Positions 3,200-59,524 of a stretch of 64,000 nt of DNA are shown here, in pieces (within the stretch, counting starts at the first letter, position 1; every line of letters starts with the position of its first letter). The translations under genes were made by a program, and so were the position numbers. The notes beneath the pieces are model-generated. The model worked only from the letters and a program-made list of their open reading frames with translations, was not told the origin of the DNA and did no database searches. This DNA comes from Ophiura sarsii (Eukaryota > Echinodermata > Ophiuroidea > Amphilepidida > Ophiuridae). The stretch covers positions 50,634,639 through 50,698,638 of the forward strand of contig CM069455.1 in the NCBI GenBank assembly GCA_035610835.1, written 5' to 3'.

Positions 3200-3391
3200 A
3201 TGCCCCTAATGCACTGCGGTTAGTTGGAGGGACTGTAGCGTCTGAAGGCCGTCTAGAAATATTTCATGACGGGGAATGGGGTACAATTTGTGACGATGAT
3301 TTTGAAATTGTTGACGCAAACGTAGCCTGTGCTCAACTGGGTTGGGGATCAGTGGCACGTATTGTAGTCTTCGATGATCGTTTCGGAAGCG
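3200..3391 (+). CDS. Exon: SRCR domain, first half
   Basis: The 192-nt phase 1-1 exon follows a TATCTACAG acceptor and ends before GTAAGATT. It encodes the N-terminal half of a scavenger receptor cysteine-rich domain: LRLVGG, then GRLEIFHDGEWGTICDDDF, then ANVACAQLGWG. Two conserved cysteines are present. The second half lies in the next exon. SRCR domains split over two exons with six cysteines are the group A type. They usually bind proteins or microbial polyanions; the ligand here is unknown. Confidence 0.93.
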
Positions 3392-18300: not shown

Positions 18301-21300
18301 CCTAATATCATACACTTTTGGAGTCGGACACATTATGATAATTTGCAATGTCACCAACTGGAAGGGTATGAACAGAATATCCAACAAGTCCGACTACAGA
18401 GCCTTGTGGCAAACCAGACTGCGAAATGATTGGATCTGAGAGTTTACCAGCTATAAACTTGGGTAGACCAATCAATTAGATAGGAACGAAACCAATTAAA
18501 TGCAGTTCCTTTGACACAAATTCGTTTAGAAAGACGTGAAATTAAAATGTGATCAATCGTGTCAAAGGCAGCTTATAGTCCAATAACACAAGAAGAACAG
18601 CTCTATTAGCATGTAGTGAAAACATAATGTCATTTTTTACTTTTATAAGTGCTGATTCAGTACTTTGCAGTGCTCTGTGTTTAGATTGGTCCGCAAGGTT
18701 GTTCAAATCCATATGTTCTGTGAGACGTAAACATGCGATCTTTTCAATTAATTTACAGACAAAAGTTATATTGGCCACAGGTCTGTAGTTCTGAAGCGTA
18801 TTTTGATCAAGAGTTTACTTTTTTAGTTTATCATCGCAGAATGAGCTCCTTTGGGAAAGACTCCGGTAGAAAGAGAGACATTTACAATATCAGCAAGCAC
18901 AGGAAGAAGTTGAGGCAGGTTGTCTTTGAGGTACCATGTTGATATAGAATCCAACCGACTGGTTTTACTTGGTGATGAATTGATGATTTTCAAAAGTTCA
19001 ATTTCATTAGTTGGTCTGAACACTTCAAGAGGAAGAATATTTACATGGGAAGAGTCACAAAAGTGATCAGGAATACTAACATTTTCATTGTCAAGTGCCT
19101 TTCTGATATTCACACTCTCATTGACAAAATATGAAGAGAATTGATTGGCGAGATCTATAGCAGAATCGTAGTATGGTAGATGCTGAATATTTTTGTTGAG
19201 AAGCGAGTTAATAGTGCGGTAGACATCTTTAGTTACTTTGTAACAGTATCGAACGATACTGGGTGTTTCAGTATTGGGCGATACTAGTACAGTCCAGAAT
19301 ATGGGACCTAAAGTACACTTTTCTCGATAAATGTCCCATCATAGGAAAACCTTACCAATGCATTCGCCAGGAATAAATGTAAATTTGCGAGAGGCAAACA
19401 GCTCAAATTATTATATATATAGCATTACAGTGACCATCGACAATTGGACGCTCAGCGGCCCACGCGGGTATGATGAAATAGGCAGCACACATGGATGGTC
19501 TGTAGTAGACATTTGCTAGATATTTGATCTAAATTTATATCGGTGTTTTTAGAACTTGGATTCATAAGATAAAAACGGGGAAAACTGGTGAGTAAAAATG
19601 GGAAAAGCTAGGCTCTGTAGGTCCCACACCACAAAATAAGTTCCCTATTGCTTTGTGTGGTTAAGAGGTCAAGTTCATGTAATTGTTTTACCCTTAGAGC
19701 AAACTGGTTCATTTAAATCATTGGTTTTAATTAAAAAGACGTCTTTTGCTTAAAAACAATCACTTTTGTTAACCTGCATTTTTTTCGCTACGGGCAAATT
19801 CGTACGACAGGCTGCATATTTTCTAAGATTCTAAGAAATCGTGTAAAATAATCCCAATCAAGAAAAAGCTAGAGATTTTGGGCCTAATGTGGAGGAAATA
19901 ACCTACAAATGCCAAATTATGAAACATTTAGGTACATTTACAGCACTTTTTACCCTTTTCTAGGACGTTCAATTTAGACTTATGTGTGTGTGTGGGGGGG
20001 GGGGGGGGGGGGGGGGATCTATCTTAATTTCAAACACTGCCGGGTATTGCCAGAATGCAAAATATAATTTTGTGGTGCGCCGATAGTGGACCATGTAGAC
20101 GTGTGGATCCATTCCGCTCGAGGGCAAGGGTGTTGGGCGCACTTACCACTTGCAAAAAATTAAGTTCCAGAATTTGACTTGACTGAAACATTTACGGTAT
20201 TGTGTCCTCCGATACAGGTGGATTTCACAAACTTCGGTAGACAACATTATGGAAACTGTATTATGTTGTCAAGTGGTGGCAGCTGGCAAGGTCGAGATTG
20301 TGAAATTGTTGGATATCCCATCTGTAAACGACGGAAAAGTAAGTCAATTGTATGGTCAACACCCTTGTTTTGGAACGCCCTCTATTTTTTATTTTGTACC
20401 TCTAAATTGAATGTTGTTGTCAAATCATATTTTTAAACAGCCCGGAAACTAAAATAACATTACAGAGCAATACGCTTGCTAATAACTTCAAAATCAAATA
20501 TGGAAAATAAGTTGTCACGCGGCTAACCCGACAGTTTAATTTCTGAGTACTTTTTCGTTCGTAAATATATAGAAATTCATGGTTTAACACGTATTTCCTG
20601 TTTTAATCGCACAATGTAAATAAGTGAACACATCCATATAGAATGCTTTATGATGAAAATACAAACATTGTAAAAATACCATTTCATAAATGAGCCATCA
20701 AAATTGTAACACGTGTTACCAACACGCGGTGTCCAGGAAATGTTCTAAAACGTCGATAAAGTTGGATTATTTATATTTTTTCTTGGCAAAAATATTATTA
20801 GATGAATCGATTTTCTTGCCATCTCCATATTACAGATATTTCCATAACAGATATTGACGAATGTGCTAAGAATACTGACGATTGCAATGCTGACGCGACA
20901 TGTATAAACACAGTAGGCAATTATACTTGTCAGTGTAATGATGGTTATGTCGGGGATGGTAGAACATGTTTGGGTAAGTGTAAGCATTGCTTACGTACTG
21001 CCTTTAGAAATGTTATTTCCCAAAATAATTTAGTTTCTATTGATGCCAGTCATGCCAGTTATAATTTCCCCCCACTGGTTAGGCCTTTTCATAAAAGAGT
21101 AAACAATATGATACATTCTAGAATTACATTTCACAGGTTGTTCACATTAAAAAAGGGAAGTCGAGTCGAGGGAAAGGACTAAATGGCATGTCTAATTGTT
21201 GCATTCATGTTGATATTTTCTTTAAGCTACTAGTATTTTGTAATAATTCTATTTTTTTGTACATGACTAAATTATCTGACCGGCTATGATGGTGATGATG

Positions 21301-24300
21301 ATGATATTGATGATGGTGATAATGATATTGATGATGACGATGACGACGATGACGATGATCTTCGTGGTCGTCATCGTTATCGTACTGTCGTCATCGTCTT
21401 TTGATTTTCATCGCCTTCTATGGATATATTTTCTTGCAATGTCCCAGAATGCAACGCGTGTTACCGACTTTAAATATTATTTTCCAGTGGTCTCACATTC
21501 ACAACCGTTAATCTTTTATGTTAGTATTATCACGGGGATCTAGTCTAAGTATTTCGTTTCTTTTTACTGAGAGAGTACAAAGAATACAAATGATTTTAAC
21601 CATGACATTGCCCATACATAATTTATAAACAAAGCAAATGTGAGGCTATCAATGGTTTTCGTTCTTTTAACATAATTATTTATATTGCTATGGTCCACTT
21701 CCATAATAGATGTTAATGAATGTTCTAAAAATACGGACAACTGCCATGCTGATGCAACATGTATCAATTCTGGTGGCAATTATACCTGTATTTGTATTGA
21801 TGGGTATAACGGGGATGGCAGGACATGTTTGGGTGAGTTAAGAATTCCTTTGCGTATGTTTTGTTCTAGAAATGCATTTCCTATGTAATTTGGTTTCAAT
21901 TGATGCCACTTTAAATTGTCCTCATACTAGATGACTCATAAAGAGCTTGTTTTAACATGTTTAAACATCAGTTTACCGTTTAAAATAAATGGTAAACACT
22001 CTGACAAATTCCAAAATACTGTTTCATAAATAAGCCATCAAAATTTGTAACGCGTGTTACCAAACGAGCTTTCCAGGAAACGTGCTAAAACGTCGATAAT
22101 AAAGTTTACCCAAGCGAGCGGAAATTGTAATTGTCGGCATTTTGCTGGGAACCCATGGTTACCAGTTAGCCATTCACGTTCCACTTCCGGGTGCCAACGA
22201 AAGCAGCCTTTGTTGGTTTTCTTGCTCATTCCATCTTGGTGCCTCTGCACCTCATTCGCATTTCAGTCTTCATACCAAGAGGATATCATTTAAATAATCC
22301 TACTTCAGTGTATTGTGCGCATCAGTTTCCGATGTCTAAGAGTAAAGTTGGATTATTTATCAATTTTCTTGGCAAAAATGTTAGGTCAATTTATTTTCTG
22401 GCTATCATTGACTTCCATAACAGATATTGACGAATGTGCTAAGAATACTGACGGTTGCAATGCTGACGCGACATGTATGAACACAGTAGGCAATTATACT
22501 TGTCAGTGTAATGATGGTTATGTCGGGGATGGTAGAACATGTTTGGGTAAGTGTAGACATTGCTTACGTATTGCCTTTAGAAATGTTATTTCCAAAATAA
22601 TTTGTTTTTATTGTTGCCAGTTATAATTTCTCCCCCACTAGAAAGGCTTTTCTTAAAATAGTTAACAATATGATACATTCCAAAATTACATTTCACAGGT
22701 TGTTCACATTAGAAAGGGGAGGTCGCGTCGAGGGAAAGGACTACATGTCATGTCTAATTGTTGCATTCATTTTGATATTTTGTCGTCATCGTTATCGTAC
22801 TGTCGTCATCGTCTTTTGATTTTCATCGCCTTCTATGGATATATTTTCTTGCAATGTCCCAGAATGCAACGCGTGTTACAGACTTTAAATATTATTTTCC
22901 AGTGGTCTCACATTCACAACCGTTAATCTTTTATGTTAGTATTATCACGGGGATCTAGTCTAAGTATTTCTTTTCTTTTTACTGAGAGAGTGAGAGAGTT
23001 TTTACTGAGCCTATGTTGGTTTTCTTGCTCATTCCATCTTGGTGCCTCTGCACCTCATTCGCATTTCAGTCTTCATACCAAGAGGATATCATTTAAATAA
23101 TCCTACTTCTGTGTATTGTGCGCATCAATTTCCGATGTCTAAGAGTAAAGTTGGATTATTTATCAATTTTCTTGGCAAAAATATTAGGTCAATTTATTTT
23201 CTGGCTATCATTGACTTCCATAACAGATATTGACGAATGTGCTAAGAATACTGACGGTTGCAATGCTGACGCGACATGTATAAACACAGTAGGCAATTAT
23301 ACTTGTCAGTGTAATGATGGTTATGTCGGGGATGGTAGAACATGTTTGGGTAAGTGTAGACATTGCTTACGTATTGCCTTTAGAAATGTTATTTCCAAAA
23401 TAATTTGTTTTTATTGTTGCCAGTTATAATTTCTCCCCCACTAGAAAGGCTTTTCTTAAAATAGTTAACAATATGATACATTCCAAAATTACATTTCACA
23501 GGTTGTTCACATTAGAAAGGGGAGGTCGCGTCGAGGGAAAGGACTAGATGTCATGTCTAATTGTTGCATTCATTTTGATATTTTGTCGTCATCGTTATCG
23601 TACTGTCGTCATCGTCTTTTGATTTTCATCGTCTTCTATGGATATATTTTCTTGCAATGTCCCAGAATGCAACGCGTGTTACAGACTTTAAATATTATTT
23701 TCCAGTGGTCTCACATTCACAACCGTTAATCTTTTATGTTAGTATTATCACGGGGATCTAGTCTAAGTATTTCGTTTCTTTTTACTGAGAGAGTACAAAG
23801 AATACAAATGATTTTAACCATGACATTGCCCATACATAATTTATAAACAAAGCAAATGTGAGGCTATCAATGGTTTTCGTTCTTTTAACATAATTATTTA
23901 TATTGCTATGGTCCACTTCCATAATAGATGTTAATGAATGTTCTAAAAATACGGACAACTGCCATGCTGATGCAACATGTATCAATTCTGGTGGCAATTA
24001 TACCTGTATTTGTATTGATGGGTATAACGGGGATGGCAGGACATGTTTGGGTGAGTTAAGAATTCCTTTGCGTATGTTTTGTTCTAGAAATGCATTTCCT
24101 ATGTAATTTGGTTTCAATTGATGCCACTTTAAATTGTCCTCATACTAGATGACTCATAAAGAGCATGTTTTAACATGTTTAAACATCAGTTTACCGTTTA
24201 AAATAAATGGTAAACACTCTGACAAATTCCAAAATACTGTTTCATAAATAAGCCATCAAAATTTGTAACGCGTGTTACCAAACGAGCTTTCCAGGAAACG

Positions 24301-27300
24301 TGCTAAAACGTCGATAATAAAGTTTACCCAAGCGAGCGGAAATTGTAATTGTCGGCATTTTGCTGGGAACCCATGGTTACCAGTTAGCCATTCACGTTCC
24401 ACTTCCGGGTGCCAACGAAAGCAGCCTTTGTTGGTTTTCTTGCTCATTCCATCTTGGTGCCTTTGCACCTCATTCGCATTTCAGTCTTCATACCAAGAGG
24501 ATATCATTTAAATAATCCTACTTCAGTGTATTGTGCGCATCAGTTTCCGATGTCTAAGAGTAAAGTTGGATTATTTATCAATTTTCTTGGCAAAAATGTT
24601 AGGTCAATTTATTTTCTGGCTATCATTGACTTCCATAACAGATATTGACGAATGTGCTAAGAATACTGACGGTTGCAATGCTGACGCGACATGTATGAAC
24701 ACAGTAGGCAATTATACTTGTCAGTGTAATGATGGTTATGTCGGGGATGGTAGAACATGTTTGGGTAAGTGTAGACATTGCTTACGTATTGCCTTTAGAA
24801 ATGTTATTTCCAAAATAATTTGTTTTTATTGTTGCCAGTTATAATTTCTCCCCCACTAGAAAGGCTTTTCTTAAAATAGTTAACAATATGATACATTCCA
24901 AAATTACATTTCACAGGTTGTTCACATTAGAAAGGGGAGGTCGCGTCGAGGGAAAGGACTACATGTCATGTCTAATTGTTGCATTCATTTTGATATTTTG
25001 TCGTCATCGTTATCGTACTGTCGTCATCGTCTTTTGATTTTCATCGCCTTCTATGGATATATTTTCTTGCAATGTCCCAGAATGCAACGCGTGTTACAGA
25101 CTTTAAATATTATTTTCCAGTGGTCTCACATTCACAACCGTTAATCTTTTATGTTAGTATTATCACGGGGATCTAGTCTAAGTATTTCTTTTCTTTTTAC
25201 TGAGAGAGTGAGAGAGTTTTTACTGAGCCTATGTTGGTTTTCTTGCTCATTCCATCTTGGTGCCTCTGCACCTCATTCGCATTTCAGTCTTCATACCAAG
25301 AGGATATCATTTAAATAATCCTACTTCTGTGTATTGTGCGCATCAATTTCCGATGTCTAAGAGTAAAGTTGGATTATTTATCAATTTTCTTGGCAAAAAT
25401 ATTAGGTCAATTTATTTTCTGGCTATCATTGACTTCCATAACAGATATTGACGAATGTGCTAAGAATACTGACGGTTGCAATGCTGACGCGACATGTATG
25501 AACACAGTAGGCAATTATACTTGTCAGTGTAATGATGGTTATGTCGGGGATGGTAGAACATGTTTGGGTAAGTGTAGACATTGCTTACGTATTGCCTTTA
25601 GAAATGTTATTTCCAAAATAATTTGTTTTTATTGTTGCCAGTTATAATTTCTCCCCCACTAGAAAGGCTTTTCTTAAAATAGTAAACAATATGATACATT
25701 CCAAAATTACATTTCACAGGTTGTTCACATTAGAAAGGGGAGGTCGCGTCGAGGGAAAGGACTAGATGTCATGTCTAATTGTTGCATTCATTTTGATATT
25801 TTGTCGTCATCGTTATCGTACTGTCGTCATCGTCTTTTGATTTTCATCGTCTTCTATGGATATATTTTCTTGCAATGTCCCAGAATGCAACGCGTGTTAC
25901 AGACTTTAAATATTATTTTCCAGTGGTCTCACATTCACAACCGTTAATCTTTTATGTTAGTATTATCACGGGGATCTAGTCTAAGTATTTCGTTTCTTTT
26001 TACTGAGAGAGTACAAAGAATACAAATGATTTTAACCATGACATTGCCCATACATAATTTATAAACAAAGCAAATGTGAGGCTATCAATGGTTTTCGTTC
26101 TTTTAACATAATTATTTATATTGCTATGGTCCACTTCCATAATAGATGTTAATGAATGTTCTAAAAATACGGACAACTGCCATGCTGATGCAACATGTAT
26201 CAATTCTGGTGGCAATTATACCTGTATTTGTATTGATGGGTATAACGGGGATGGCAGGACATGTTTGGGTGAGTTAAGAATTCCTTTGCGTATGTTTTGT
26301 TCTAGAAATGCATTTCCTATGTAATTTGGTTTCAATTGATGCCACTTTAAATTGTCCTCATACTAGATGACTCATAAAGAGCATGTTTTAACATGTTTAA
26401 ACATCAGTTTACCGTTTAAAATAAATGGTAAACACTCTGACAAATTCCAAAATACTGTTTCATAAATAAGCCATCAAAATTTGTAACGCGTGTTACCAAA
26501 CGAGCTTTCCAGGAAACGTGCTAAAACGTCGATAATAAAGTTTACCCAAGCGAGCGGAAATTGTAATTGTCGGCATTTTGCTGGGAACCCATGGTTACCA
26601 GTTAGCCATTCACGTTCCACTTCCGGGTGCCAACGAAAGCAGCCTTTGTTGGTTTTCTTGCTCATTCCATCTTGGTGCCTTTGCACCTCATTCGCATTTC
26701 AGTCTTCATACCAAGAGGATATCATTTAAATAATCCTACTTCAGTGTATTGTGCGCATCAGTTTCCGATGTCTAAGAGTAAAGTTGGATTATTTATCAAT
26801 TTTCTTGGCAAAAATGTTAGGTCAATTTATTTTCTGGCTATCATTGACTTCCATAACAGATATTGACGAATGTGCTAAGAATACTGACGGTTGCAATGCT
26901 GACGCGACATGTATGAACACAGTAGGCAATTATACTTGTCAGTGTAATGATGGTTATGTCGGGGATGGTAGAACATGTTTGGGTAAGTGTAGACATTGCT
27001 TACGTATTGCCTTTAGAAATGTTATTTCCAAAATAATTTGTTTTTATTGTTGCCAGTTATAATTTCTCCCCCACTAGAAAGGCTTTTCTTAAAATAGTTA
27101 ACAATATGATACATTCCAAAATTACATTTCACAGGTTGTTCACATTAGAAAGGGGAGGTCGCGTCGAGGGAAAGGACTACATGTCATGTCTAATTGTTGC
27201 ATTCATTTTGATATTTTGTCGTCATCGTTATCGTACTGTCGTCATCGTCTTTTGATTTTCATCGCCTTCTATGGATATATTTTCTTGCAATGTCCCAGAA

Positions 27301-30300
27301 TGCAACGCGTGTTACAGACTTTAAATATTATTTTCCAGTGGTCTCACATTCACAACCGTTAATCTTTTATGTTAGTATTATCACGGGGATCTAGTCTAAG
27401 TATTTCTTTTCTTTTTACTGAGAGAGTGAGAGAGTTTTTACTGAGCCTATGTTGGTTTTCTTGCTCATTCCATCTTGGTGCCTCTGCACCTCATTCGCAT
27501 TTCAGTCTTCATACCAAGAGGATATCATTTAAATAATCCTACTTCTGTGTATTGTGCGCATCAATTTCCGATGTCTAAGAGTAAAGTTGGATTATTTATC
27601 AATTTTCTTGGCAAAAATATTAGGTCAATTTATTTTCTGGCTATCATTGACTTCCATAACAGATATTGACGAATGTGCTAAGAATACTGACGGTTGCAAT
27701 GCTGACGCGACATGTATGAACACAGTAGGCAATTATACTTGTCAGTGTAATGATGGTTATGTCGGGGATGGTAGAACATGTTTGGGTAAGTGTAGACATT
27801 GCTTACGTATTGCCTTTAGAAATGTTATTTCCAAAATAATTTGTTTTTATTGTTGCCAGTTATAATTTCTCCCCCACTAGAAAGGCTTTTCTTAAAATAG
27901 TAAACAATATGATACATTCCAAAATTACATTTCACAGGTTGTTCACATTAGAAAGGGGAGGTCGCGTCGAGGGAAAGGACTAGATGTCATGTCTAATTGT
28001 TGCATTCATTTTGATATTTTGTCGTCATCGTTATCGTACTGTCGTCATCGTCTTTTGATTTTCATCGCCTTCTATGGATATATTTTCTTGCAATGTCCCA
28101 GAATGCAACGCGTGTTACAGACTTTAAATATTATTTTCCAGTGGTCTCACATTCACAACCGTTAATCTTTTATGTTAGTATTATCACGGGGATCTAGTCT
28201 AAGTATTTCGTTTCTTTTTACTGAGAGAGTACAAAGAATACAAATGATTTTAACCATGACATTGCCCATACATAATTTATAAACAAAGCAAATGTGAGGC
28301 TATCAATGGTTTTCGTTCTTTTAACATAATTATTTATATTGCTATGGTCCACTTCCATAATAGATGTTAATGAATGTTCTAAAAATACGGACAACTGCCA
28401 TGCTGATGCAACATGTATCAATTCTGGTGGCAATTATACCTGTATTTGTATTGATGGGTATAACGGGGATGGCAGGACATGTTTGGGTGAGTTAAGAATT
28501 CCTTTGCGTATGTTTTGTTCTAGAAATGCATTTCCTATGTAATTTGGTTTCAATTGATGCCACTTTAAATTGTCCTCATACTAGATGACTCATAAAGAGC
28601 ATGTTTTAACATGTTTAAACATCAGTTTACCGTTTAAAATAAATGGTAAACACTCTGACAAATTCCAAAATACTGTTTCATAAATAAGCCATCAAAATTT
28701 GTAACGCGTGTTACCAAACGAGCTTTCCAGGAAACGTGCTAAAACGTCGATAATAAAGTTTACCCAAGCGAGCGGAAATTGTAATTGTCGGCATTTTGCT
28801 GGGAACCCATGGTTACCAGTTAGCCATTCACGTTCCACTTCCGGGTGCCAACGAAAGCAGCCTTTGTTGGTTTTCTTGCTCATTCCATCTTGGTGCCTTT
28901 GCACCTCATTCGCATTTCAGTCTTCATACCAAGAGGATATCATTTAAATAATCCTACTTCAGTGTATTGTGCGCATCAGTTTCCGATGTCTAAGAGTAAA
29001 GTTGGATTATTTATCAATTTTCTTGGCAAAAATGTTAGGTCAATTTATTTTCTGGCTATCATTGACTTCCATAACAGATATTGACGAATGTGCTAAGAAT
29101 ACTGACGGTTGCAATGCTGACGCGACATGTATGAACACAGTAGGCAATTATACTTGTCAGTGTAATGATGGTTATGTCGGGGATGGTAGAACATGTTTGG
29201 GTAAGTGTAGACATTGCTTACGTATTGCCTTTAGAAATGTTATTTCCAAAATAATTTGTTTTTATTGTTGCCAGTTATAATTTCTCCCCCACTAGAAAGG
29301 CTTTTCTTAAAATAGTTAACAATATGATACATTCCAAAATTACATTTCACAGGTTGTTCACATTAGAAAGGGGAGGTCGCGTCGAGGGAAAGGACTACAT
29401 GTCATGTCTAATTGTTGCATTCATTTTGATATTTTGTCGTCATCGTTATCGTACTGTCGTCATCGTCTTTTGATTTTCATCGCCTTCTATGGATATATTT
29501 TCTTGCAATGTCCCAGAATGCAACGCGTGTTACAGACTTTAAATATTATTTTCCAGTGGTCTCACATTCACAACCGTTAATCTTTTATGTTAGTATTATC
29601 ACGGGGATCTAGTCTAAGTATTTCTTTTCTTTTTACTGAGAGAGTGAGAGAGTTTTTACTGAGCCTATGTTGGTTTTCTTGCTCATTCCATCTTGGTGCC
29701 TCTGCACCTCATTCGCATTTCAGTCTTCATACCAAGAGGATATCATTTAAATAATCCTACTTCTGTGTATTGTGCGCATCAATTTCCGATGTCTAAGAGT
29801 AAAGTTGGATTATTTATCAATTTTCTTGGCAAAAATATTAGGTCAATTTATTTTCTGGCTATCATTGACTTCCATAACAGATATTGACGAATGTGCTAAG
29901 AATACTGACGGTTGCAATGCTGACGCGACATGTATGAACACAGTAGGCAATTATACTTGTCAGTGTAATGATGGTTATGTCGGGGATGGTAGAACATGTT
30001 TGGGTAAGTGTAGACATTGCTTACGTATTGCCTTTAGAAATGTTATTTCCAAAATAATTTGTTTTTATTGTTGCCAGTTATAATTTCTCCCCCACTAGAA
30101 AGGCTTTTCTTAAAATAGTAAACAATATGATACATTCCAAAATTACATTTCACAGGTTGTTCACATTAGAAAGGGGAGGTCGCGTCGAGGGAAAGGACTA
30201 GATGTCATGTCTAATTGTTGCATTCATTTTGATATTTTGTCGTCATCGTTATCGTACTGTCGTCATCGTCTTTTGATTTTCATCGTCTTCTATGGATATA

Positions 30301-33300
30301 TTTTCTTGCAATGTCCCAGAATGCAACGCGTGTTACAGACTTTAAATATTATTTTCCAGTGGTCTCACATTCACAACCGTTAATCTTTTATGTTAGTATT
30401 ATCACGGGGATCTAGTCTAAGTATTTCGTTTCTTTTTACTGAGAGAGTACAAAGAATACAAATGATTTTAACCATGACATTGCCCATACATAATTTATAA
30501 ACAAAGCAAATGTGAGGCTATCAATGGTTTTCGTTCTTTTAACATAATTATTTATATTGCTATGGTCCACTTCCATAATAGATGTTAATGAATGTTCTAA
30601 AAATACGGACAACTGCCATGCTGATGCAACATGTATCAATTCTGGTGGCAATTATACCTGTATTTGTATTGATGGGTATAACGGGGATGGCAGGACATGT
30701 TTGGGTGAGTTAAGAATTCCTTTGCGTATGTTTTGTTCTAGAAATGCATTTCCTATGTAATTTGGTTTCAATTGATGCCACTTTAAATTGTCCTCATACT
30801 AGATGACTCATAAAGAGCATGTTTTAACATGTTTAAACATCAGTTTACCGTTTAAAATAAATGGTAAACACTCTGACAAATTCCAAAATACTGTTTCCTA
30901 AATAAGCCATCAAAATTTGTAACGCGTGTTACCAAACGAGCTTTCCAGGAAACGTGCTAAAACGTCGATAATAAAGTTTACCCAAGCGAGCGGAAATTGT
31001 AATTGTCGGCATTTTGCTGGGAACCCATGGTTACCAGTTAGCCATTCACGTTCCACTTCCGGGTGCCAACGAAAGCAGCCTTTGTTGGTTTTCTTGCTCA
31101 TTCCATCTTGGTGCCTTTGCACCTCATTCGCATTTCAGTCTTCATACCAAGAGGATATCATTTAAATAATCCTACTTCAGTGTATTGTGCGCATCAGTTT
31201 CCGATGTCTAAGAGTAAAGTTGGATTATTTATCAATTTTCTTGGCAAAAATGTTAGGTCAATTTATTTTCTGGCTATCATTGACTTCCATAACAGATATT
31301 GACGAATGTGCTAAGAATACTGACGGTTGCAATGCTGACGCGACATGTATGAACACAGTAGGCAATTATACTTGTCAGTGTAATGATGGTTATGTCGGGG
31401 ATGGTAGAACATGTTTGGGTAAGTGTAGACATTGCTTACGTATTGCCTTTAGAAATGTTATTTCCAAAATAATTTGTTTTTATTGTTGCCAGTTATAATT
31501 TCTCCCCCACTAGAAAGGCTTTTCTTAAAATAGTTAACAATATGATACATTCCAAAATTACATTTCACAGGTTGTTCACATTAGAAAGGGGAGGTCGCGT
31601 CGAGGGAAAGGACTACATGTCATGTCTAATTGTTGCATTCATTTTGATATTTTGTCGTCATCGTTATCGTACTGTCGTCATCGTCTTTTGATTTTCATCG
31701 CCTTCTATGGATATATTTTCTTGCAATGTCCCAGAATGCAACGCGTGTTACAGACTTTAAATATTATTTTCCAGTGGTCTCACATTCACAACCGTTAATC
31801 TTTTATGTTAGTATTATCACGGGGATCTAGTCTAAGTATTTCTTTTCTTTTTACTGAGAGAGTGAGAGAGTTTTTACTGAGCCTATGTTGGTTTTCTTGC
31901 TCATTCCATCTTGGTGCCTCTGCACCTCATTCGCATTTCAGTCTTCATACCAAGAGGATATCATTTAAATAATCCTACTTCTGTGTATTGTGCGCATCAA
32001 TTTCCGATGTCTAAGAGTAAAGTTGGATTATTTATCAATTTTCTTGGCAAAAATATTAGGTCAATTTATTTTCTGGCTATCATTGACTTCCATAACAGAT
32101 ATTGACGAATGTGCTAAGAATACTGACGGTTGCAATGCTGACGCGACATGTATGAACACAGTAGGCAATTATACTTGTCAGTGTAATGATGGTTATGTCG
32201 GGGATGGTAGAACATGTTTGGGTAAGTGTAGACATTGCTTACGTATTGCCTTTAGAAATGTTATTTCCAAAATAATTTGTTTTTATTGTTGCCAGTTATA
32301 ATTTCTCCCCCACTAGAAAGGCTTTTCTTAAAATAGTAAACAATATGATACATTCCAAAATTACATTTCACAGGTTGTTCACATTAGAAAGGGGAGGTCG
32401 CGTCGAGGGAAAGGACTAGATGTCATGTCTAATTGTTGCATTCATTTTGATATTTTGTCGTCATCGTTATCGTACTGTCGTCATCGTCTTTTGATTTTCA
32501 TCGTCTTCTATGGATATATTTTCTTGCAATGTCCCAGAATGCAACGCGTGTTACAGACTTTAAATATTATTTTCCAGTGGTCTCACATTCACAACCGTTA
32601 ATCTTTTATGTTAGTATTATCACGGGGATCTAGTCTAAGTATTTCGTTTCTTTTTACTGAGAGAGTACAAAGAATACAAATGATTTTAACCATGACATTG
32701 CCCATACATAATTTATAAACAAAGCAAATGTGAGGCTATCAATGGTTTTCGTTCTTTTAACATAATTATTTATATTGCTATGGTCCACTTCCATAATAGA
32801 TGTTAATGAATGTTCTAAAAATACGGACAACTGCCATGCTGATGCAACATGTATCAATTCTGGTGGCAATTATACCTGTATTTGTATTGATGGGTATAAC
32901 GGGGATGGCAGGACATGTTTGGGTGAGTTAAGAATTCCTTTGCGTATGTTTTGTTCTAGAAATGCATTTCCTATGTAATTTGGTTTCAATTGATGCCACT
33001 TTAAATTGTCCTCATACTAGATGACTCATAAAGAGCATGTTTTAACATGTTTAAACATCAGTTTACCGTTTAAAATAAATGGTAAACACTCTGACAAATT
33101 CCAAAATACTGTTTCATAAATAAGCCATCAAAATTTGTAACGCGTGTTACCAAACGAGCTTTCCAGGAAACGTGCTAAAACGTCGATAATAAAGTTTACC
33201 CAAGCGAGCGGAAATTGTAATTGTCGGCATTTTGCTGGGAACCCATGGTTACCAGTTAGCCATTCACGTTCCACTTCCGGGTGCCAACGAAAGCAGCCTT

Positions 33301-36300
33301 TGTTGGTTTTCTTGCTCATTCCATCTTGGTGCCTTTGCACCTCATTCGCATTTCAGTCTTCATACCAAGAGGATATCATTTAAATAATCCTACTTCAGTG
33401 TATTGTGCGCATCAGTTTCCGATGTCTAAGAGTAAAGTTGGATTATTTATCAATTTTCTTGGCAAAAATGTTAGGTCAATTTATTTTCTGGCTATCATTG
33501 ACTTCCATAACAGATATTGACGAATGTGCTAAGAATACTGACGGTTGCAATGCTGACGCGACATGTATGAACACAGTAGGCAATTATACTTGTCAGTGTA
33601 ATGATGGTTATGTCGGGGATGGTAGAACATGTTTGGGTAAGTGTAGACATTGCTTACGTATTGCCTTTAGAAATGTTATTTCCAAAATAATTTGTTTTTA
33701 TTGTTGCCAGTTATAATTTCTCCCTCACTAGAAAGGCTTTTCTTAAAATAGTTAACAATATGATACATTCCAAAATTACATTTCACAGGTTGTTCACATT
33801 AGAAAGGGGAGGTCGCGTCGAGGGAAAGGACTACATGTCATGTCTAATTGTTGCATTCATTTTGATATTTTGTCGTCATCGTTATCGTACTGTCGTCATC
33901 GTCTTTTGATTTTCATCGCCTTCTATGGATATATTTTCTTGCAATGTCCCAGAATGCAACGCGTGTTACAGACTTTAAATATTATTTTCCAGTGGTCTCA
34001 CATTCACAACCGTTAATCTTTTATGTTAGTATTATCACGGGGATCTAGTCTAAGTATTTCTTTTCTTTTTACTGAGAGAGTGAGAGAGTTTTTACTGAGC
34101 CTATGTTGGTTTTCTTGCTCATTCCATCTTGGTGCCTCTGCACCTCATTCGCATTTCAGTCTTCATACCAAGAGGATATCATTTAAATAATCCTACTTCT
34201 GTGTATTGTGCGCATCAATTTCCGATGTCTAAGAGTAAAGTTGGATTATTTATCAATTTTCTTGGCAAAAATATTAGGTCAATTTATTTTCTGGCTATCA
34301 TTGACTTCCATAACAGATATTGACGAATGTGCAAAGAATACTGACGGTTGCAATGCTGACGCGACATGTATGAACACAGTAGGCAATTGTACTTGTCAGT
34401 GTAATGATGGTTATGTCGGGGATGGTAGAACATGTTTGGGTAAGTGTAGACATTGCTTACGTATTGCCTTTAGAAATGTTATTTCCAAAATAATTTGTTT
34501 TTATTGTTGCCAGTTATAATTTCTCCCCCACTAGAAAGGCTTTTCTTAAAATAGTAAACAATATGATACATTCCAAAATTACATTTCACAGGTTGTTCAC
34601 ATTAGAAAGGGGAGGTCGCGTCGAGGGAAAGGACTAGATGTCATGTCTAATTGTTGCATTCATTTTGATATTTTGTCGTCATCGTTATCGTACTGTCGTC
34701 ATCGTCTTTTGATTTTCATCGTCTTCTATGGATATATTTTCTTGCAATGTCCCAGAATGCAACGCGTGTTACAGACTTTAAATATTATTTTCCAGTGGTC
34801 TCACATTCACAACCGTTGATCTTTTATGTTAGTATTATCACGGGGATCTAGTCTAAGTATTTCGTTTCTTTTTACTGAGAGAGTACAAAGAATACAAATG
34901 ATTTTAACCATGACATTGCCCATACATAATTTATAAACAAAGCAAATGTGAGGCTATCAATGGTTTTCGTTCTTTTAACATAATTATTTATATTGCTATG
35001 GTCCACTTCCATAATAGATGTTAATGAATGTTCGGGTGAGTTAAGAATTCCTTTGCGTATGTTTTGTTCTAGAAATGCATTTCCTATGTAATTTGGTTTC
35101 AATTGATGCCACTTTAAATTGTCCTCATACTAGATGACTCATAAAGAACATGTTTTAACATGTTTAAACATCAGTTTACCGTTTAAAACAAAATGGTAAA
35201 CACTCTGACAAATTCCAAAATACTGTTTCATAAATAAGCCATCAAAATTTGTAACGCGTGTTACCAAACGAGCTGTCCAGGAAACGTGCTAAAACGTCGA
35301 TAATAAAGTTTACCCAAGCGAGCGGAAATTGTAATTGTTGGCATTTTGCTGGGAACCCATGGTTACCAGTTAGCCATTCACGTTCCACTTCCAGGTGCCA
35401 ACGAAAGCAGCCTTTGTTTGTTTTCTTGCTCATTCCATCTTGGTGCCTCTGCACCTCATTCGCATTTCAGTCTTCATACCAAGAGGATATCATTTAAATA
35501 ATCCTACTTCAGTGTATTGTGCGCATCAGTTTCCGATGTCTAAGAGTAAAGTTGGATTATTTATCAATTTTCTTGGCAAAAATGTTAGGTCAATTTATTT
35601 TCTGGCTATCATTGACTTCCATAACAGATATTGACGAATGTGCTAAGAATACTGACGGTTGCAATGCTGACGCGACATGTATGAACACAGTAGGCAATTA
35701 TACTTGTCAGTGTAATGATGGTTATGTCGGGGATGGTAGAACATGTTTGGGTAAGTGTAGACATTGCTTACGTATTGCATTTAGAAATGTTATTTCCAAA
35801 ATAATTTGTTTTTATTGTTGCCAGTTATAATTTCTCCCCCACTAGAAAGGCTTTTCTTAAAATAGTTAACAATATGATACATTCCAAAATTACATTTCAC
35901 AGGTTGTTCACATTAGAAAGGGGAGGTCGCGTCGAGGGAAAGGACTACATGTCATGTCTAATTGTTGCATTCATTTTGATATTTTGTCGTCATCGTTATC
36001 GTACTGTCGTCATCGTCTTTTGATTTTCATCGCCTTCTATGGATATATTTTCTTGCAATGTCCCAGAATGCAACGCGTGTTACAGACTTTAAATATTATT
36101 TTCCAGTGGTCTCACATTCACAACCGTTAATCTTTTATGTTAGTATTATCACGGGGATCTAGTCTAAGTATTTCTTTTCTTTTTACTGAGAGAGTGAGAG
36201 AGTTTTTACTGAGCCTATGTTGGTTTTCTTGCTCATTCCATCTTGGTGCCTCTGCACCTCATTCGCATTTCAGTCTTCATACCAAGAGGATATCATTTAA

Positions 36301-39300
36301 ATAATCCTACTTCTGTGTATTGTGCGCATCAATTTCCGATGTCTAAGAGTAAAGTTGGATTATTTATCAATTTTCTTGGCAAAAATATTAGGTCAATTTA
36401 TTTTCTGGCTATCATTGACTTCCATAACAGATATTGACGAATGTGCTAAGAATACTGACGGTTGCAATGCTGACGCGACATGTATGAACACAGTAGGCAA
36501 TTATACTTGTCAGTGTAATGATGGTTATGTCGGGGATGGTAGAACATGTTTGGGTAAGTGTAGACATTGCTTACGTATTGCCTTTAGAAATGTTATTTCC
36601 AAAATAATTTGTTTTTATTGTTGCCAGTTATAATTTCTCCCCCACTAGAAAGGCTTTTCTTAAAATATTAAACAATATGATACATTCCAAAATTACATTT
36701 CACAGGTTGTTCACATTAGAAAGGGGAGGTCGCGTCGAGGGAAAGGACTAGATGTCATGTCTAATTGTTGCATTCATTTTGATATTTTGTCGTCATCGTT
36801 ATCGTACTGTCGTCATCGTCTTTTGATTTTCATCGTCTTCTATGGATATATTTTCTTGCAATGTCCCAGAATGCAACGCGTGTTACAGACTTTAAATATT
36901 ATTTTCCAGTGGTCTCACATTCACAACCGTTGATCTTTTATGTTAGTATTATCACGGGGATCTAGTCTAAGTATTTCGTTTCTTTTTACTGAGAGAGTAC
37001 AAAGAATACAAATGATTTTAACCATGACATTGCCCATACATAATTTATAAACAAAGCAAATGTGAGGCTATCAATGGTTTTCGTTCTTTTATCATAATTA
37101 TTTATATTGCTATGGTCCACTTCCATAATAGATGTTAATGAATGTTCTAAAAATACGGACAACTGCCATGCTGATGCAACATGTATCAATTCTGGTGGCA
37201 ATTATACCTGTATTTGTATTGATGGGTATAACGGGGATGGCAGGACATGTTTGGGTGAGTTAAGAATTCCTTTGCGTATGTTTTGTTCTAGAAATGCATT
37301 TCCTATGTAATTTGGTTTCAATTGATGCCACTTTAAATTGTCCTCATACTAGATGACTCATAAAGAACATGTTTTAACATGTTTAAACATCAGTTTACCG
37401 TTTAAAACAAAATGGTAAACACTCTGACAAATTCCAAAATACTGTTTCATAAATAAGCCATCAAAATTTGTAACGCGTGTTACCAAACGAGCTGTCCAGG
37501 AAACGTGCTAAAACGTCGATAATAAAGTTTACCCAAGCGAGCGGAAATTGTAATTGTTGGCATTTTGCTGGGAACCCATGGTTACCAGTTAGCCATTCAC
37601 GTTCCACTTCCAGGTGCCAACGAAAGCAGCCTTTGTTTGTTTTCTTGCTCATTCCATCTTGGTGCCTCTGCACCTCATTCGCATTTCAGTCTTCATACCA
37701 AGAGGATATCATTTAAATAATCCTACTTCAGTGTATTGTGCGCATCAGTTTCCGATGTCTAAGAGTAAAGTTGGATTATTTATCAATTTTCTTGGCAAAA
37801 ATATTAGGTCAATTTATTTTCTGGCTATTATTGACTTCCATAACAGATATTGACGAATGTGCTAAGAATGCTGACGATTGCAATGCTGACGCGACATGTA
37901 TAAACACAGTAGGCAATTATACTTGTCAGTGTAATGATGGTTATGTCGGGGATGGTAGAACATGTTTGGGTAAGTGTAGACATTGCTCACGTATTGCCTT
38001 TAGAAATGTTATTTCCAAAATAATTTGGTTTCAATTGTTGCCAGTTATAATTTCTCCCCCGAAATAGTAAACAATATGATACATTCCAAAATTACATTTC
38101 ACAGGTTGTTCACATTTAGTAAAGGGAGGTCGAGTCTAGGGAAAGGACTAAATAATGGCATGTCTACCTTTTGCATTCATTTTTGTACATGACTTTTATC
38201 TGATGACGATGATGATATTGATGATGACGACGATGACGATGATCTTCGTTGTCGTCATCGTTATCGTACTTTCATCATCTTCTTCTGATTTTCATTTCCT
38301 TCTACAGATATTGACGAATGTGAAACGAATGGTGATGATTGCCACGCAGATGCAACATGTACAAATACTGTAGGAAATTATGCATGTGAATGCAAAGCCA
38401 GCATTGGCAGCACTTGTGCAGGTAGGCTTATTAGTTATAGTACTATGGTATGATATCATAATTATACGGGGAGGGTTAACAAATACAACATCCGCGGTTT
38501 GGATGACTTACAGTGACTGGTGGCTATACCTCCCGACGCTCTGCGTCGGGAGGTACTCACTAGTCACTAGCGGACCTCAAGGTATAGCAAAATCACTGTT
38601 CGGACTAGCGGCACTTCGGAGTAGTGGACCGTCGGACTAGCGGCACTTCGGACTAGCGGATCGATACCTATATCAGGGCTTGATGTAATGTGCAATTGTT
38701 GGTCTTGAATTTTTTTTTATTGATTTGCTTGTATTTTTATTATTTTATGTTGTATCCTATCATTGTCTAATCAAAATTAAAAATTGAAAGCTTACGTTGC
38801 TCCCGCGTAGGCTCCTAGTAGGCATACACAGGCCAGGCTACACAGTGTAGTACGCATAGCGAGGAAGCGGCTGACTCATTTCCCCTGGCAGAAGAATAAT
38901 ATCATCGAAACACGTTTCTTATTCGTCACAATAATTGCCGCAGACCTTCACGATGCAGCATCTTAATTAATTAAAAGATTCCTCAAATCTCCGTATGTTT
39001 AGTTCGCGAATTTCGTCGGCAGATACTTAGCAGACGACGCTATGTTTGTGGTTGTCAACCTCGTACTTGGCGTCACCAGTTAATATGTACGTACTATTCA
39101 TAGGCTCTAGAAATGTTTTTGGGACGATGTTGATTAGCAGGACGGTAATCAAAACTTTGTTTGATAATAGTATAAAAAACAAACAAGCATTCGGCAGGCT
39201 TTTTAATTTATCTAGCTCTGTCAGAAATGAACCAATCAAAACAGAGGTTATATTTGAGAGAAGTATTGATTAATTTCTTGTGTGTGCTGTCTGAATCACT

Positions 39301-39675: not shown

Positions 39676-42600
39676 ATAATAATAATAATAATGGCAGCTT
39701 ATAATGCGCCAACATTCAACAAAATTGTTGCTCCAGGCGCATCGACACAACATTGCAAAACTAAATTAGTACAAAAATTTGAATGAAGGAAAACCGTCAT
39801 CACTTCAACACATCAACAACAAGAAATGGTAGCGTTGACATGGTTGAACTAATGACAATCCCCACCCACAATGTGAACAACGCCACAAATAATAACATAC
39901 ACATCAAGAACATACAAATTCATAAAAACATCAATCAAAGAAATCACTCTCAGATTTCATAATTAAGGTCTTTAACAATGTTTTGAAAGAATCCACAGAT
40001 TCTGTAGTTTTTACAGACTCCGGAAGCTTACACAAAAATAGTATTGAATCAACAATATGCATTGTTCCAGAATCTTGATTCACCATCAGGGTAACTGTTT
40101 AACATGTCTCATTTTCATCTTTGAAAGCATCATAATTTGGATAGGCTTTTTAGTAAAAGAGGCCCTGCATAAGATGCAGTTTACTGGAATCAGACGGACT
40201 ACTGAACTTTTAACGCTTCTAGATTAGAAGATGTTAGAGGAATATATAGAGAATATGGTTGAACTGAACGCCTATATATTATAATGACATCGCTGTTCTT
40301 CCCCATCTGACTCATTAGCACATTTGGTAGAGCGCTGGTCTAGTAACCCAGAGGTCCCAGGTTTAATTCATGGATGGTCAGTGAATTTTTCACTGACTGT
40401 CATTTATCTTGTTTGGAGAAAACAGACTTAATGTGCACTACTGAACTTTGTTCACCAATCTACAAATAATATGCACAAGTTTCACATCACTTTAGAAAAA
40501 AGAATAAAGCTGCGATTCAGTACACGCGCATTGTCACTGCACAGCACAAACAATGGTATCCCATAGAAAAATGGATGTGCTCCACCTTTTTTCATTATAT
40601 CTGATGGAAATGTGTACTTTAGGTCTCAGATACTGGTATACCAGTATCGTTCAATAATGGAACATAAACGTTGCCAGTATCGCTCGATTTTAATTTTAAG
40701 ATTTGTGTTTTTCTTTAGATACCAGTCACTGAAAATAACGTCGTAAATGTTGTGGCTGACTTAACTCAAGTTATAAATGAAGGTACTGTAATCGATAGTC
40801 AAGGTCTGGAGTCCATTGCCATAATCCTGGATGGTGTTGCTGATGTAGAACTGCCGGATGAAAGCGTAAGAATTAAGCCAAGATCAAAGTCAATCATACA
40901 AAAAACAAAATGTTCCGCGAGCCCGATTGACCCTATATTTTCCGAATTGAGATATTCTGTTTTGGTTTCAAAGCTTTTCTTCTTCAAATTCATGATTTTA
41001 ATTGGAAAGATTTATTTCCTGAAAATAAAGAAAGATAATTAGAGAAAAACCCAACATAATCCCCAAAGTGGTCCGTCCGTATTAAGATAATTATTTCGTA
41101 AGAAATGAATTTAGAACACATGCAACAAACATTTTGATTCTTAACCTCGTTAATCAGTAAGCTTTGCCAATAAAACACTATTTTGAGGCTTGAATAACAT
41201 ATTTCAATTGAATTTAATAGCTCTGCATAACTAGAAAAGTCGGACTATTCCAGTTAAAATTCATACACCCCTATGGAAGACATTAATGCACATAGGTGTA
41301 AATCCCGGGCGGATGGGGTGGGTGGGGGGGGGGGGGGGAGGATATATATCCCCCAATATTTGGCCAGGGGGATGGCCTATGCAATCACCCCCAATGTAAT
41401 ACATGAAACAACTATCACCGTGATAGAAATGTCTAATCAGAATAATTATAGCCACATTTTCCGACCGCATTTCCCCTTCTACTCCCCTGATGCTGGTGCC
41501 GTCACTAGCCTATCACCCACATGACAACAACAAATTTACGCCACTGTCAATGCACAGGGATTATAGTCACCCAGCAGGTAACCCAATTTGAAATACACAG
41601 TTTCCCTGTGGGGAAGATTAAGGTAATGTCTTCCGTAGGGTGTGTATGGATTTCATATGGAACAGTCCATAATATGATACAGCAACATTAATCCTTCATT
41701 CCAAACAGCTAACGAGATCCGTTGTGGCAATCGTAGACGACGTCCTGACCAAGTACGACGAGGATCGTAACGAAGATTCATACACACCAAAGGACGATGA
41801 CGTATCGCCCATCCCTAATCAGATTCAAAGAGCACTTGAAAGACAGATATCATCGTTACAGTCGGACCCAGATGGCAGTAACAATACTGTCATCGAAGGG
41901 GAAAACGTGGTCATCCGTGCCGTGAAAATTCCAAGAGAGTCTCTCATTAATAACAACCTGGTATTTGAAAGCATTCCATCGGGTGATGTGAACACTGCCA
42001 ATGGTAGCTCAACTACACGTGTATATATACACACGGGAGACGCCCCTGACAAAAGGCCTGAAGCCGCCATTTATTTGCCAAGTGATGTGTTTCTTTCCTC
42101 TACAGGTATTGTTTCACGTGTTACAGTTCGAATCACGATCTCTTTATCATTTTTATGACGTACAGTAAGCACTCCGCCAAAACAACTGATTAGTGCGCGG
42201 TGTGTATCAAACGAGTGTGTGTTATCTGCACCTCTGTTGAAATCTTTCCATTGGCCGGCTATCTGTTGAACAGAGGATCACTTTTAAATTGCTGTTGTTG
42301 TTTATAATACACTAAACAGTCTTGCACCGATATACCTATTAACTGATTCAAATGATATGTTCCAAACAAACACTTACTGCATAACTATTTTGTTTATGTC
42401 AGATACTCCTTTTTGCGAGTCACCACTCTCTGCCTTACAATAAGCAGTTCAGACGGAAGCATACGACCTTGCACGCTCTGACGTCATATTTTCCCATGAT
42501 TCACGTCACAGGCCCGTAACTAGGGGGGGGGGGGGGGGGGGGGCGGTCGCCTCCCAAATCTGAAAAAAATAAATCCTTTTTTTGTACCAATGTACCTTTT

Positions 42601-56889: not shown

Positions 56890-57040
56890 AGCACTTTCCA
56901 CGCGGCTATTGGTTTTACCATATACAAAACAGATTTTTCAGAAACCTTTCTCAACTTTCAAAGTTTATCTCAAGAATTACTGAACCAATACTAGGCATGT
57001 GTGTACTTCTTTTAATGCATTTCTCATGGTGATTCTATTA
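56890..57040. mobile_element. CCACGCGGC-type MITE, truncated by the 890-bp array
   Basis: Starts CACTTTCCACGCGGCTATTG and matches 2768-2930. The right end is cut exactly where the tandem array starts (57041). Confidence 0.7.
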
Positions 57041-59424: not shown

Positions 59425-59524
59425 ACAAGTACTTGGCTTTGACATCTCGTCAACGACAAATACTTGCCTAGCCCCCCCCCCCCCCCCCCCCCCCAGGCAA
59501 AGGGGTAGACTCCCCCTGCCAGGC

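What the first reader, a model, noticed from the sequence alone, without database searches (positions are those of the whole stretch)
21367..38060. Near-identical 2218-bp tandem amplification of three cbEGF exons inside an adhesion GPCR
Seven units (six of exactly 2218 bp) plus a partial one each add three symmetric phase 1-1 cbEGF exons. Introns are as conserved as exons, so the array is young or kept uniform by gene conversion. Unequal crossing over, or skipping of whole units, would change stalk length by 123 codons per unit without breaking frame. That would give a receptor whose reach from the membrane could vary between alleles or transcripts.
Basis: partly seen in the sequence, partly recalled or inferred. 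Interest (0 to 1): 0.92.

Follow-up and report, generated by a model that had tools for sequence, protein, structure and literature searches.

The report
Young repeat array lengthens receptor stalk
In what is probably a brittle-star genome, a receptor gene carries a stretch of near-identical, repeatedly copied exons that would lengthen the stalk holding its lectin head away from the cell, while neighbouring copies of the gene have much shorter stalks, so stalk length looks easy to change in evolution.

Summary
Seven 2.2-kb units plus a partial one tile 21367-38183. Six are exactly 2218 bp and differ by 0-9 bases. The seventh is 2114 bp: an in-frame 105-bp deletion leaves its first EGF exon as an 18-nt remnant. 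The array exons are phase 1-1 and open, and join to an SRCR-lectin-cbEGF-GAIN/GPS-7TM adhesion GPCR model of 1870 residues without an internal stop.

Beyond the finding: the same scaffold holds two more copies of the gene with 5 and 2 EGF exons, against 24 here. One of them keeps the older 1.4-kb A-B repeat from which the 2218-bp unit can be derived. Elsewhere in the genome, EGF arrays with other periods (about 302 and 1746 bp) lie 5' of related 7TM exons. The last lectin exon is only 40-58% identical between the three copies, while the 7TM is 97% identical (two copies compared).

Best reading: a multi-exon coding tandem repeat, recently amplified and probably homogenised by unequal exchange, acting as a length-variable calcium-stiffened spacer. 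By 7TM phylogeny it is an echinoderm receptor apart from vertebrate EGF-TM7 receptors. Allelic variation, exon skipping and function are untested. The assembly is uncertain here (scaffold gap 2.5 kb beyond the window); the copies could be paralogues or unmerged haplotypes.

The parts
3200..3391 (+). SRCR domain, exon 1 of 2 (phase 1-1)
   Evidence: Pfam SRCR over both exons, 101.5 bits; splice phases fit. Upstream exons, start codon and signal peptide not identified
3587..3724 (+). SRCR domain, exon 2 of 2
   Evidence: SRCR also upstream of the lectin in both other copies
12064..12222 (+). C-type lectin domain, exon 1 of 3
   Evidence: Pfam Lectin_C
13699..13781 (+). C-type lectin domain, exon 2 of 3
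20218..20338 (+). C-type lectin domain, exon 3 of 3 (very different between gene copies; EPN motif of the other two copies absent here)
20851..20973 (+). cbEGF exon B0, left of the array
21220..21366 (+). intron block (microsatellite plus left hairpin arm) missing from the 14 B-exon junctions inside the array
   Evidence: fold of 21270-21430 z -3.8
21367..23584 (+). Unit 1 (2218 bp): exons A 21710-21832, B 22424-22546, B' 23227-23349
23585..25802 (+). Unit 2 (2218 bp): exons at 23928, 24642, 25445
25803..28020 (+). Unit 3 (2218 bp): exons at 26146, 26860, 27663; identical to unit 2
28021..30238 (+). Unit 4 (2218 bp): exons at 28364, 29078, 29881
30239..32456 (+). Unit 5 (2218 bp): exons at 30582, 31296, 32099
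32457..34674 (+). Unit 6 (2218 bp): exons at 32800, 33514, 34317; the last has a Tyr-to-Cys change
34675..36788 (+). Unit 7 (2114 bp): exon A cut to 18 nt (35018-35035), then B 35628 and B' 36431
36789..38183 (+). Partial unit 8: exon A 37132-37254 and last B 37847-37969
22205..23794 (+). Nested 787-bp repeat pair (22205-22991, 23008-23794; 803-bp period): B' subunit equals the 1415-bp A-B unit minus about 612 bp holding exon A
38184..38307 (+). intron block with the second hairpin, after the last B exon
   Evidence: fold of 38180-38310 z -4.0
38308..38421 (+). cbEGF exon C, divergent, right of the array
   Evidence: Pfam EGF_CA
40726..43343 (+). GAIN region, exons 40726-40865, 41709-42105, 43132-43343
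   Evidence: Pfam GPR128 GAIN subdomain B 20.7 bits, cut-off 21.7
43795..43965 (+). GPS exon, with the sequence CQCNHLTSFAVLV
   Evidence: Pfam GPS 67.8 bits
44704..48184 (+). 7TM region and cytoplasmic tail, exons 44704-44810, 45196-45458, 46889-46955, 47584-48184 (stop)
   Evidence: Pfam 7tm_2 139.1 bits

Best explanation
This is a multi-exon coding tandem repeat inside one adhesion GPCR gene (SRCR, C-type lectin, 24 complete cbEGF exons, GAIN/GPS, 7TM). RECONSTRUCTED FROM SEQUENCE: a 1415-bp A-B repeat, still present with a 1419-bp spacing in a sister copy, lost exon A from one copy by a deletion of about 612 bp. The resulting 2218-bp A-B-B' cassette was then amplified to at least seven units. 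INFERRED: unequal exchange between out-of-register units amplified it and keeps the middle units uniform while the edge units drift. INFERRED: each unit is spliced in and adds 123 residues, so unit number sets the length of a calcium-stiffened rod that holds the SRCR/lectin head away from the membrane. Copies with fewer units then make shorter receptors with an almost unchanged 7TM. INFERRED: stalk and head evolve fast because they meet a changing partner, while the signalling end is conserved.
For: Units. Open spliced frame of 1870 residues with matching phases; of the three readings of 25 stalk exons only the coding one is free of stops in all 25. Identity falls towards the edges: mean differences among units 2-5 are 1.0, units 1 and 6 to them 4.75, unit 7 10.5, partial unit 28.5. 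Mean pairwise difference of units 1-6 is 0.16%, against 37/1466 (2.5%) between this gene and the sister copy over A-B DNA outside exon A, so the array is younger than that split or homogenised since. The sister copy lacks the A-deletion junction that all seven units here carry, but shares the hairpin-arm deletion junction. EGF exons: 24, 5 and 2 complete in the three copies. Other EGF arrays with periods of about 302 and 1746 bp lie 5' of 7TM matches on the same strand; the link is by position, without a gene model. A strict cbEGF pattern fits 21 of 24 complete EGF domains. Nearest solved EGF structure: ADGRE5.
Against: No transcript, read or second individual was available. A 100-N scaffold gap lies at C15:50701131-50701230, about 2.5 kb past the window, and near-identical duplicates crowd the region, so copy order and number could be assembly products. 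Units 2 and 3 are identical, as an assembler's duplicate would be. The edge gradient could also come from simple growth from the middle. Exon A is not more conserved than the rest of the A-B unit between window and sister copy (2/123 against 37/1466, p=0.76). Unit 7's remnant exon would leave an odd cysteine if included. The rod-like spacer role is carried over from other cbEGF proteins (recalled), not measured here.
Confidence: 0.72

Rival explanations
1. Assembly product: one or a few real units were expanded, or the three gene copies are unmerged haplotypes stitched into one scaffold.
For: Gap next to the window and an inverted third copy cut by it. The window's 3' flank up to the gap is 99.24% identical to the sister copy's flank over 2507 columns. 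Another pair on the scaffold, 0.6 Mb apart, has 34 mismatches and 9 gaps in a 6431-column alignment. Units 2 and 3 identical.
Against: Units 1, 5, 6 and 7 carry private variants and unit 7 a private deletion. Units 1-6 differ by substitutions only; units 7 and 8 share one extra A in an A-rich stretch. The order of copies along the scaffold (X, window, inverted third, Y, sister, X') does not look like two simply stitched haplotypes (my judgement). If the copies are haplotypes, they would be alleles of very different length, which supports the variable-stalk idea.
Confidence: 0.2
2. The array is real but neutral or decaying: exon gains and losses drift because symmetric EGF exons cost little, with no selection on length.
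For: No exon constraint inside the array (3 of 10 variable sites exonic) nor for exon A against the sister copy (p=0.76); a Cys gain in unit 6 and a truncated exon in unit 7; weak donor GTTTGT in the last A exon of the sister copy.
Against: The 23 intact 123-nt exons plus the remnant account for all 24 expected A and B exons, without stop or splice-site loss; B0 exon far more conserved than its introns against B' (p=3e-6) and against the sister copy's B0 (0/123 and 17/292, p=0.005); arrays of different period in the family.
Confidence: 0.35
3. The extra exons mostly feed alternative splicing, giving isoforms with different EGF numbers as in ADGRE2 and ADGRE5, rather than one long stalk.
For: All stalk exons symmetric, donors and acceptors nearly identical; EGF-number variants are described for EMR2 and CD97 (passages of PMC6667449).
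Against: No transcript data; splice sites are uniform and conventional, which predicts constitutive inclusion as well as skipping.
Confidence: 0.3

Closest known systems
LPA kringle IV-2 coding repeat (human)
   Same: Tandem units that contain whole exons plus introns inside one gene; each unit adds a domain; highly similar units
   Different: There 5.6 kb units, two exons, 1 to about 40 units per allele, in apolipoprotein(a) (passages of PMC11462820); here 2.2 kb, three exons, a GPCR stalk, polymorphism untested
EGF-TM7 receptors ADGRE2/EMR2 and ADGRE5/CD97
   Same: EGF stalk, GPS and 7TM; EGF number variable (passages); closest solved EGF structure is ADGRE5. Database proteins P0283 (Macrotis lagotis) and P0112 (Hemitrygon akajei, a ray), named ADGRE2-like, also have EGF units up to 98% identical in protein
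   Different: 7TM falls in an echinoderm group, apart from ADGRE; SRCR plus lectin head here
Drosophila dumpy PIGSFEAST repeats
   Different: Those lie in one large exon and are not EGF domains
Amphioxus lectin-EGF-7TM proteins (P0330, P0262)
   Same: Lectin_C, EGF and 7TM families in one protein (precomputed Pfam column)
   Different: P0262's EGF domains are diverged (best pair 68%); P0330 has few; P0262 groups with ADGRE by 7TM

Membership tests
Adhesion GPCR | Seven-transmembrane domain of the secretin/adhesion type | tested here: met
   Pfam 7tm_2 139.1 bits, cut-off 20.6
Adhesion GPCR | GPS motif before TM1 | tested here: met
   Pfam GPS 67.8 bits, cut-off 22.5
Adhesion GPCR | GAIN domain | tested here: inconclusive
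   GPR128_GAIN_subdom_B 20.7 bits, below its 21.7 cut-off; region aligns with Amphiura filiformis proteins that have GPS and 7TM
Adhesion GPCR | Autoproteolysis at the GPS | not testable with these tools
   HLTS present in sequence; cleavage not assayed
EGF-TM7 (ADGRE) | 7TM groups with ADGRE | tested here: not met
   Three ADGRE-named rows group with amphioxus P0262 and the unnamed P0309 (100/99), the window with ten echinoderm rows (99/95) (40 rows; the program warns of long branches, P0309 among them)
EGF-TM7 (ADGRE) | EGF stalk before GPS-7TM | tested here: met
   read as convergence
ADGRG | 7TM groups with vertebrate ADGRG | tested here: inconclusive
   Best hits are named ADGRG2/G6/G7-like, but the tree leaves the fork between echinoderm, ADGRG and ADGRE groups open
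Multi-exon coding tandem repeat (LPA KIV-2 kind) | Units with whole exons and introns, near-identical, frame kept | tested here: met
Multi-exon coding tandem repeat (LPA KIV-2 kind) | Unit number varies between individuals | not testable with these tools
   Only copies within one assembly compared
Multi-exon coding tandem repeat (LPA KIV-2 kind) | Repeat exons present in mRNA and protein | not testable with these tools
   No transcripts available

The most novel reading that the evidence does not exclude
A young family of adhesion GPCRs works as a diversified recognition system: the lectin exon that would face the ligand is hypervariable, the cbEGF stalk is lengthened and shortened independently in different genes by exon-array turnover, and the 7TM signalling part is held nearly constant. 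That would be a receptor family that tunes both specificity and reach by genome rearrangement, for example in immune, allorecognition or gamete recognition.
Probability: 0.22. Interest if true: 0.85.

Novelty: new variant of a known kind. Interest (0 to 1): 0.62.

Why it matters
If the array is real and spliced in, a GPCR's distance from its ligand can change in steps of three domains through ordinary unequal exchange, without touching head or signalling part. Several adhesion GPCRs are described as force-sensitive (passages of PMC8878244), so ectodomain length is a property worth testing, and this locus offers natural short (2, 5) and long (24) versions with a nearly identical 7TM in the two copies where it could be compared. 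It also suggests that an EGF-rich stalk arose apart from the vertebrate EGF-TM7 group, and gives an order of steps for how a multi-exon coding repeat starts.

Tried and rejected
Species: sizes first suggested Amphiura filiformis (1.57 Gb in PMC11310086, passages; 1,573,662,873 bases here). Rejected: A. filiformis protein P0001 matches this genome at only 38-60% identity in the 56 rows listed (56 of 1582 candidates scored). The window groups with A. filiformis rows (97/95), so a brittle star is likely but unproven. That paper's heterozygosity value was therefore not used.

ADGRE membership: rejected by the 7TM tree.

Ancestry of the EGF stalk by protein search: EGF-bearing queries returned mostly fibrillin-like, other EGF and SRCR-rich proteins, with a few 7TM proteins among the 120 shown (of 2947 and 603 hits). 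None of the first seven relatives has an EGF family in the precomputed Pfam column.

Larger EGF clusters at C5:18818642-18843141 (56 of 150 rows) and C14:64.88 Mb: no GAIN or 7TM match in the 9.7 kb and about 15 kb downstream that I read, so not counted as receptor arrays.

One search's column list left out gap columns inside exon A of unit 7 (the 105-bp deletion). Searches were script errors of mine (wrong exon ends; search range), redone. One search printed nothing because of a wrong pattern; redone, whose pattern still misses some EGF exons that one search lists (for example on C15:35.245 Mb). A genome-wide search for lectin exon 3 did not complete.
Full report
WHAT WAS CHECKED. Self-comparison finds a 2218-bp register from 21367. 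Units 1-6 are exactly 2218 bp. Their pairwise differences run from 0 (units 2 and 3) to 9 (units 1 and 6). Unit 7 is 2114 bp, and a partial unit runs from 36789 to 38183. The end lies about 120 bp further on, and unit 7 supplies two whole exons and not three.

THE GENE. A splice-consistent model of 38 exons reads 1870 residues from the SRCR domain to a TAA stop at 48184 with no internal stop. Upstream exons and the start were not identified. Pfam: SRCR 101.5 bits and Lectin_C, EGF families, GPS 67.8 and 7tm_2 139.1 bits. The GAIN model scored 20.7 bits, just below its cut-off of 21.7. The stalk has 25 exons: 23 of 123 nt, one of 114 nt and one of 18 nt, 987 codons in all. In the coding reading none of the 25 has a stop; of the other two readings, one has stops in 17 of 25 and the other in all 25. 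A strict calcium-binding pattern (recalled) fits 21 of the 24 complete domains. The three others are B0, which starts with Asn instead of Asp, exon C, which differs at one site of the pattern, and unit 6's last exon, with Tyr to Cys.

HOW THE UNIT AROSE. Inside each unit, B and B' are copies of one segment. Aligned to the A-B part of unit 1 (1415 bp), the B' part (803 bp) equals it minus about 612 bp that hold exon A. The join made by that loss occurs in all seven units of the window, and neither in the sister copy nor in the inverted third copy. The sister copy instead shows A-B-A with 1419 bp between its two A exons. A second join, between B's 3' intron and the right arm of a hairpin, occurs at 14 sites in the window, once in the sister copy and not in the third, so it is older than the A loss. 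The intact hairpin remains at both ends of the array (single-strand folds z -3.8 and -4.0). So the likely order is: A-B repeat with the hairpin-arm loss, then loss of one A, then amplification of A-B-B', and at some later point a private 105-bp loss in unit 7's exon A.

AGE AND HOMOGENISATION. Units 1-6 differ on average by 3.5 of 2218 bases (0.16%). Units 2-5 differ by 1.0, units 1 and 6 from them by 4.75, unit 7 by 10.5, and the partial unit by 28.5 over its 1389 aligned bases. This middle-uniform, edge-diverged pattern is what unequal exchange gives; recent growth from the middle would give it too. Units 1, 5, 6 and 7 have private variants; unit 4's one difference from units 2 and 3 is shared with unit 1. 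Over the same A-B DNA, window and sister copy differ at 37 of 1466 bases outside exon A and 2 of 123 in it (p=0.76). Ten sites vary among units 1-6, three of them exonic (p=0.22), so no exon constraint is visible inside the array. Exon against intron elsewhere: B0 against B' 1/123 and 45/316 (p=3e-6); B0 against the sister copy's B0 0/123 and 17/292 (p=0.005); last B against B' 2/123 and 19/428 (p=0.19, not significant).

OTHER COPIES ON THE SAME SCAFFOLD. A sister copy at C15:50946343-50994638 is broadly collinear with window 2359 and on to the gap, about 2.5 kb past the window's end. A third, inverted copy starts at the 100-N gap C15:50701131-50701230 and is cut by it after the first GAIN exon. 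Complete EGF exons: window 24, sister 5 (one with a weak donor), third 2. SRCR lies upstream of the lectin in all three. Between window and sister the 7TM has 96.8% amino-acid identity (dS 0.032, dN 0.015), GAIN 83%, SRCR 86%, GPS exon 81%. The last lectin exon has 40% (window-sister), 52.5% (window-third) and 58% (sister-third), with dS 0.48-0.56. All three lectin domains still pass Pfam. Sister and third keep an EPN motif, the window does not (that EPN marks mannose-type binding is recalled). High dS as well as dN means this may be exchange with a diverged copy or old lineages, and not simply selection on amino acids. The 7TM of the third copy is beyond the gap, so head against 7TM was compared in one pair only.

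FAMILY. The last 7TM exon has 42 matches in G000, of which 31 (window included) cover more than 500 of 601 bases at 81-100% identity. I counted EGF exons by pattern in ten other stretches. Two stalks were read in full: third 2 and sister 5. Eight stretches are partial, so lower bounds: 18, 5, 6, 6, 5, 5, 5 and 3. One stretch on C5 (18.686-18.693 Mb) holds 13 similar single-exon repeats, 8 of 12 spacings being 294-308 bp, about 24 kb 5' of a 7TM match on the same strand. Two on C15 (35.24 and 35.28 Mb) hold three near-identical exons spaced 1733-1796 bp, about 14 kb 5' of 7TM matches. These links are by position; continuity from EGF to GAIN was seen only in one further member, L022. So EGF arrays of different unit length probably arose more than once in this family. 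Two larger EGF clusters could not be tied to a 7TM.

KINSHIP. The seven best protein relatives are A. filiformis proteins named adhesion GPCR G2/G6/G7-like at 39-46% identity; P0001 and P0007 among them have a lectin domain. In a tree of 40 rows the window is sister to three A. filiformis proteins (97/95) within a set of echinoderms (99/95), apart from three vertebrate ADGRE rows. The deeper forks are open and the program warns of long branches, so 'ADGRG-like' rests on database names, not on the tree. Similar EGF repetition in vertebrate ADGRE2-like proteins (P0283 and P0112, units up to 98% identical in protein) is therefore probably convergent.

MECHANISM. Seen in sequence: copy number differs between gene copies, frame is kept, and the junctions give the cassette history above. 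Inferred: splicing of all units, a stiff extended stalk, and unit number setting reach. Octopus octovafibrin, with 29 EGF repeats between lectin domains (abstract and passages of PMC10336842), is a physical analogue, though its EGF domains are described as not calcium-binding. CD97 binds CD55 through EGF domains (passages of PMC13197933), and its down-regulation on contact with CD55 needs shear stress (passages of PMC8878244).

LITERATURE. Passages, not whole papers, were seen: LPA KIV-2 (PMC11462820), the aGPCR review (PMC13197933), EMR2/CD97 EGF-number variants (PMC6667449), dumpy repeats (PMC2930355), vertebrate aGPCR evolution (PMC8584163). In the capped listings of my searches I saw no report of a near-identical multi-exon EGF array in an adhesion GPCR; that is a statement about those listings only.

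LIMITS. One assembly, no reads, no transcripts. The gap, the inverted cut copy, a 99.24% identical 2507-column flank and a 98.7% pair 0.6 Mb apart mean the region may be part collapsed, expanded or diploid.

Noticed in passing
window 20218-20338 against C15:50963.5 kb and C15:50706.0 kb: Last lectin exon only 40-58% identical between three gene copies, while the 7TM of two of them is 97% identical.
   Followed up: partly
G000 C5:18818642-18843141: 56 of the 150 listed EGF matches lie in this 24.5-kb stretch on the minus strand; no GAIN or 7TM match in the 9.7 kb read downstream.
   Followed up: partly
G000 C14:64880992-64893765: EGF exons repeat with spacings of 2213, 2518 and 3360 bp: another array, not tied to a receptor.
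   Followed up: partly
G000 C5:18.90 and 19.19 Mb (L021, L020): Gene copies 282 kb apart are 99.8% identical over 7.4 kb: recent duplication or unmerged haplotype.
   Followed up: partly
window 57033-59428: 889-bp tandem repeat, about 2.7 copies, 99.7-99.9% identical.
   Followed up: no
window 5229-8546, 15454-16820, 17983-19338: Reverse-transcriptase-like open frames of retroelements in the gene's introns (recognised by eye); the 5.2-8.5 kb and 15-17 kb stretches are also present in the sister copy.
   Followed up: no
L014, about position 5324 (C15:50970324): Last A exon of the sister copy ends in the weak donor GTTTGT, so it may be skipped.
   Followed up: no
window 35018-35035: 18-nt in-frame remnant exon encoding DVNECS, with an unpaired cysteine if included.
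   Followed up: partly
window about 28068 (base 48 of unit 4): Unit 4 shares a base with unit 1 that units 2, 3 and 5-8 lack, a possible trace of exchange between units.
   Followed up: no
protein P0283 (Macrotis lagotis, ADGRE2-like): Three-EGF cassette repeated several times in a marsupial protein named ADGRE2-like, a likely convergent case.
   Followed up: partly
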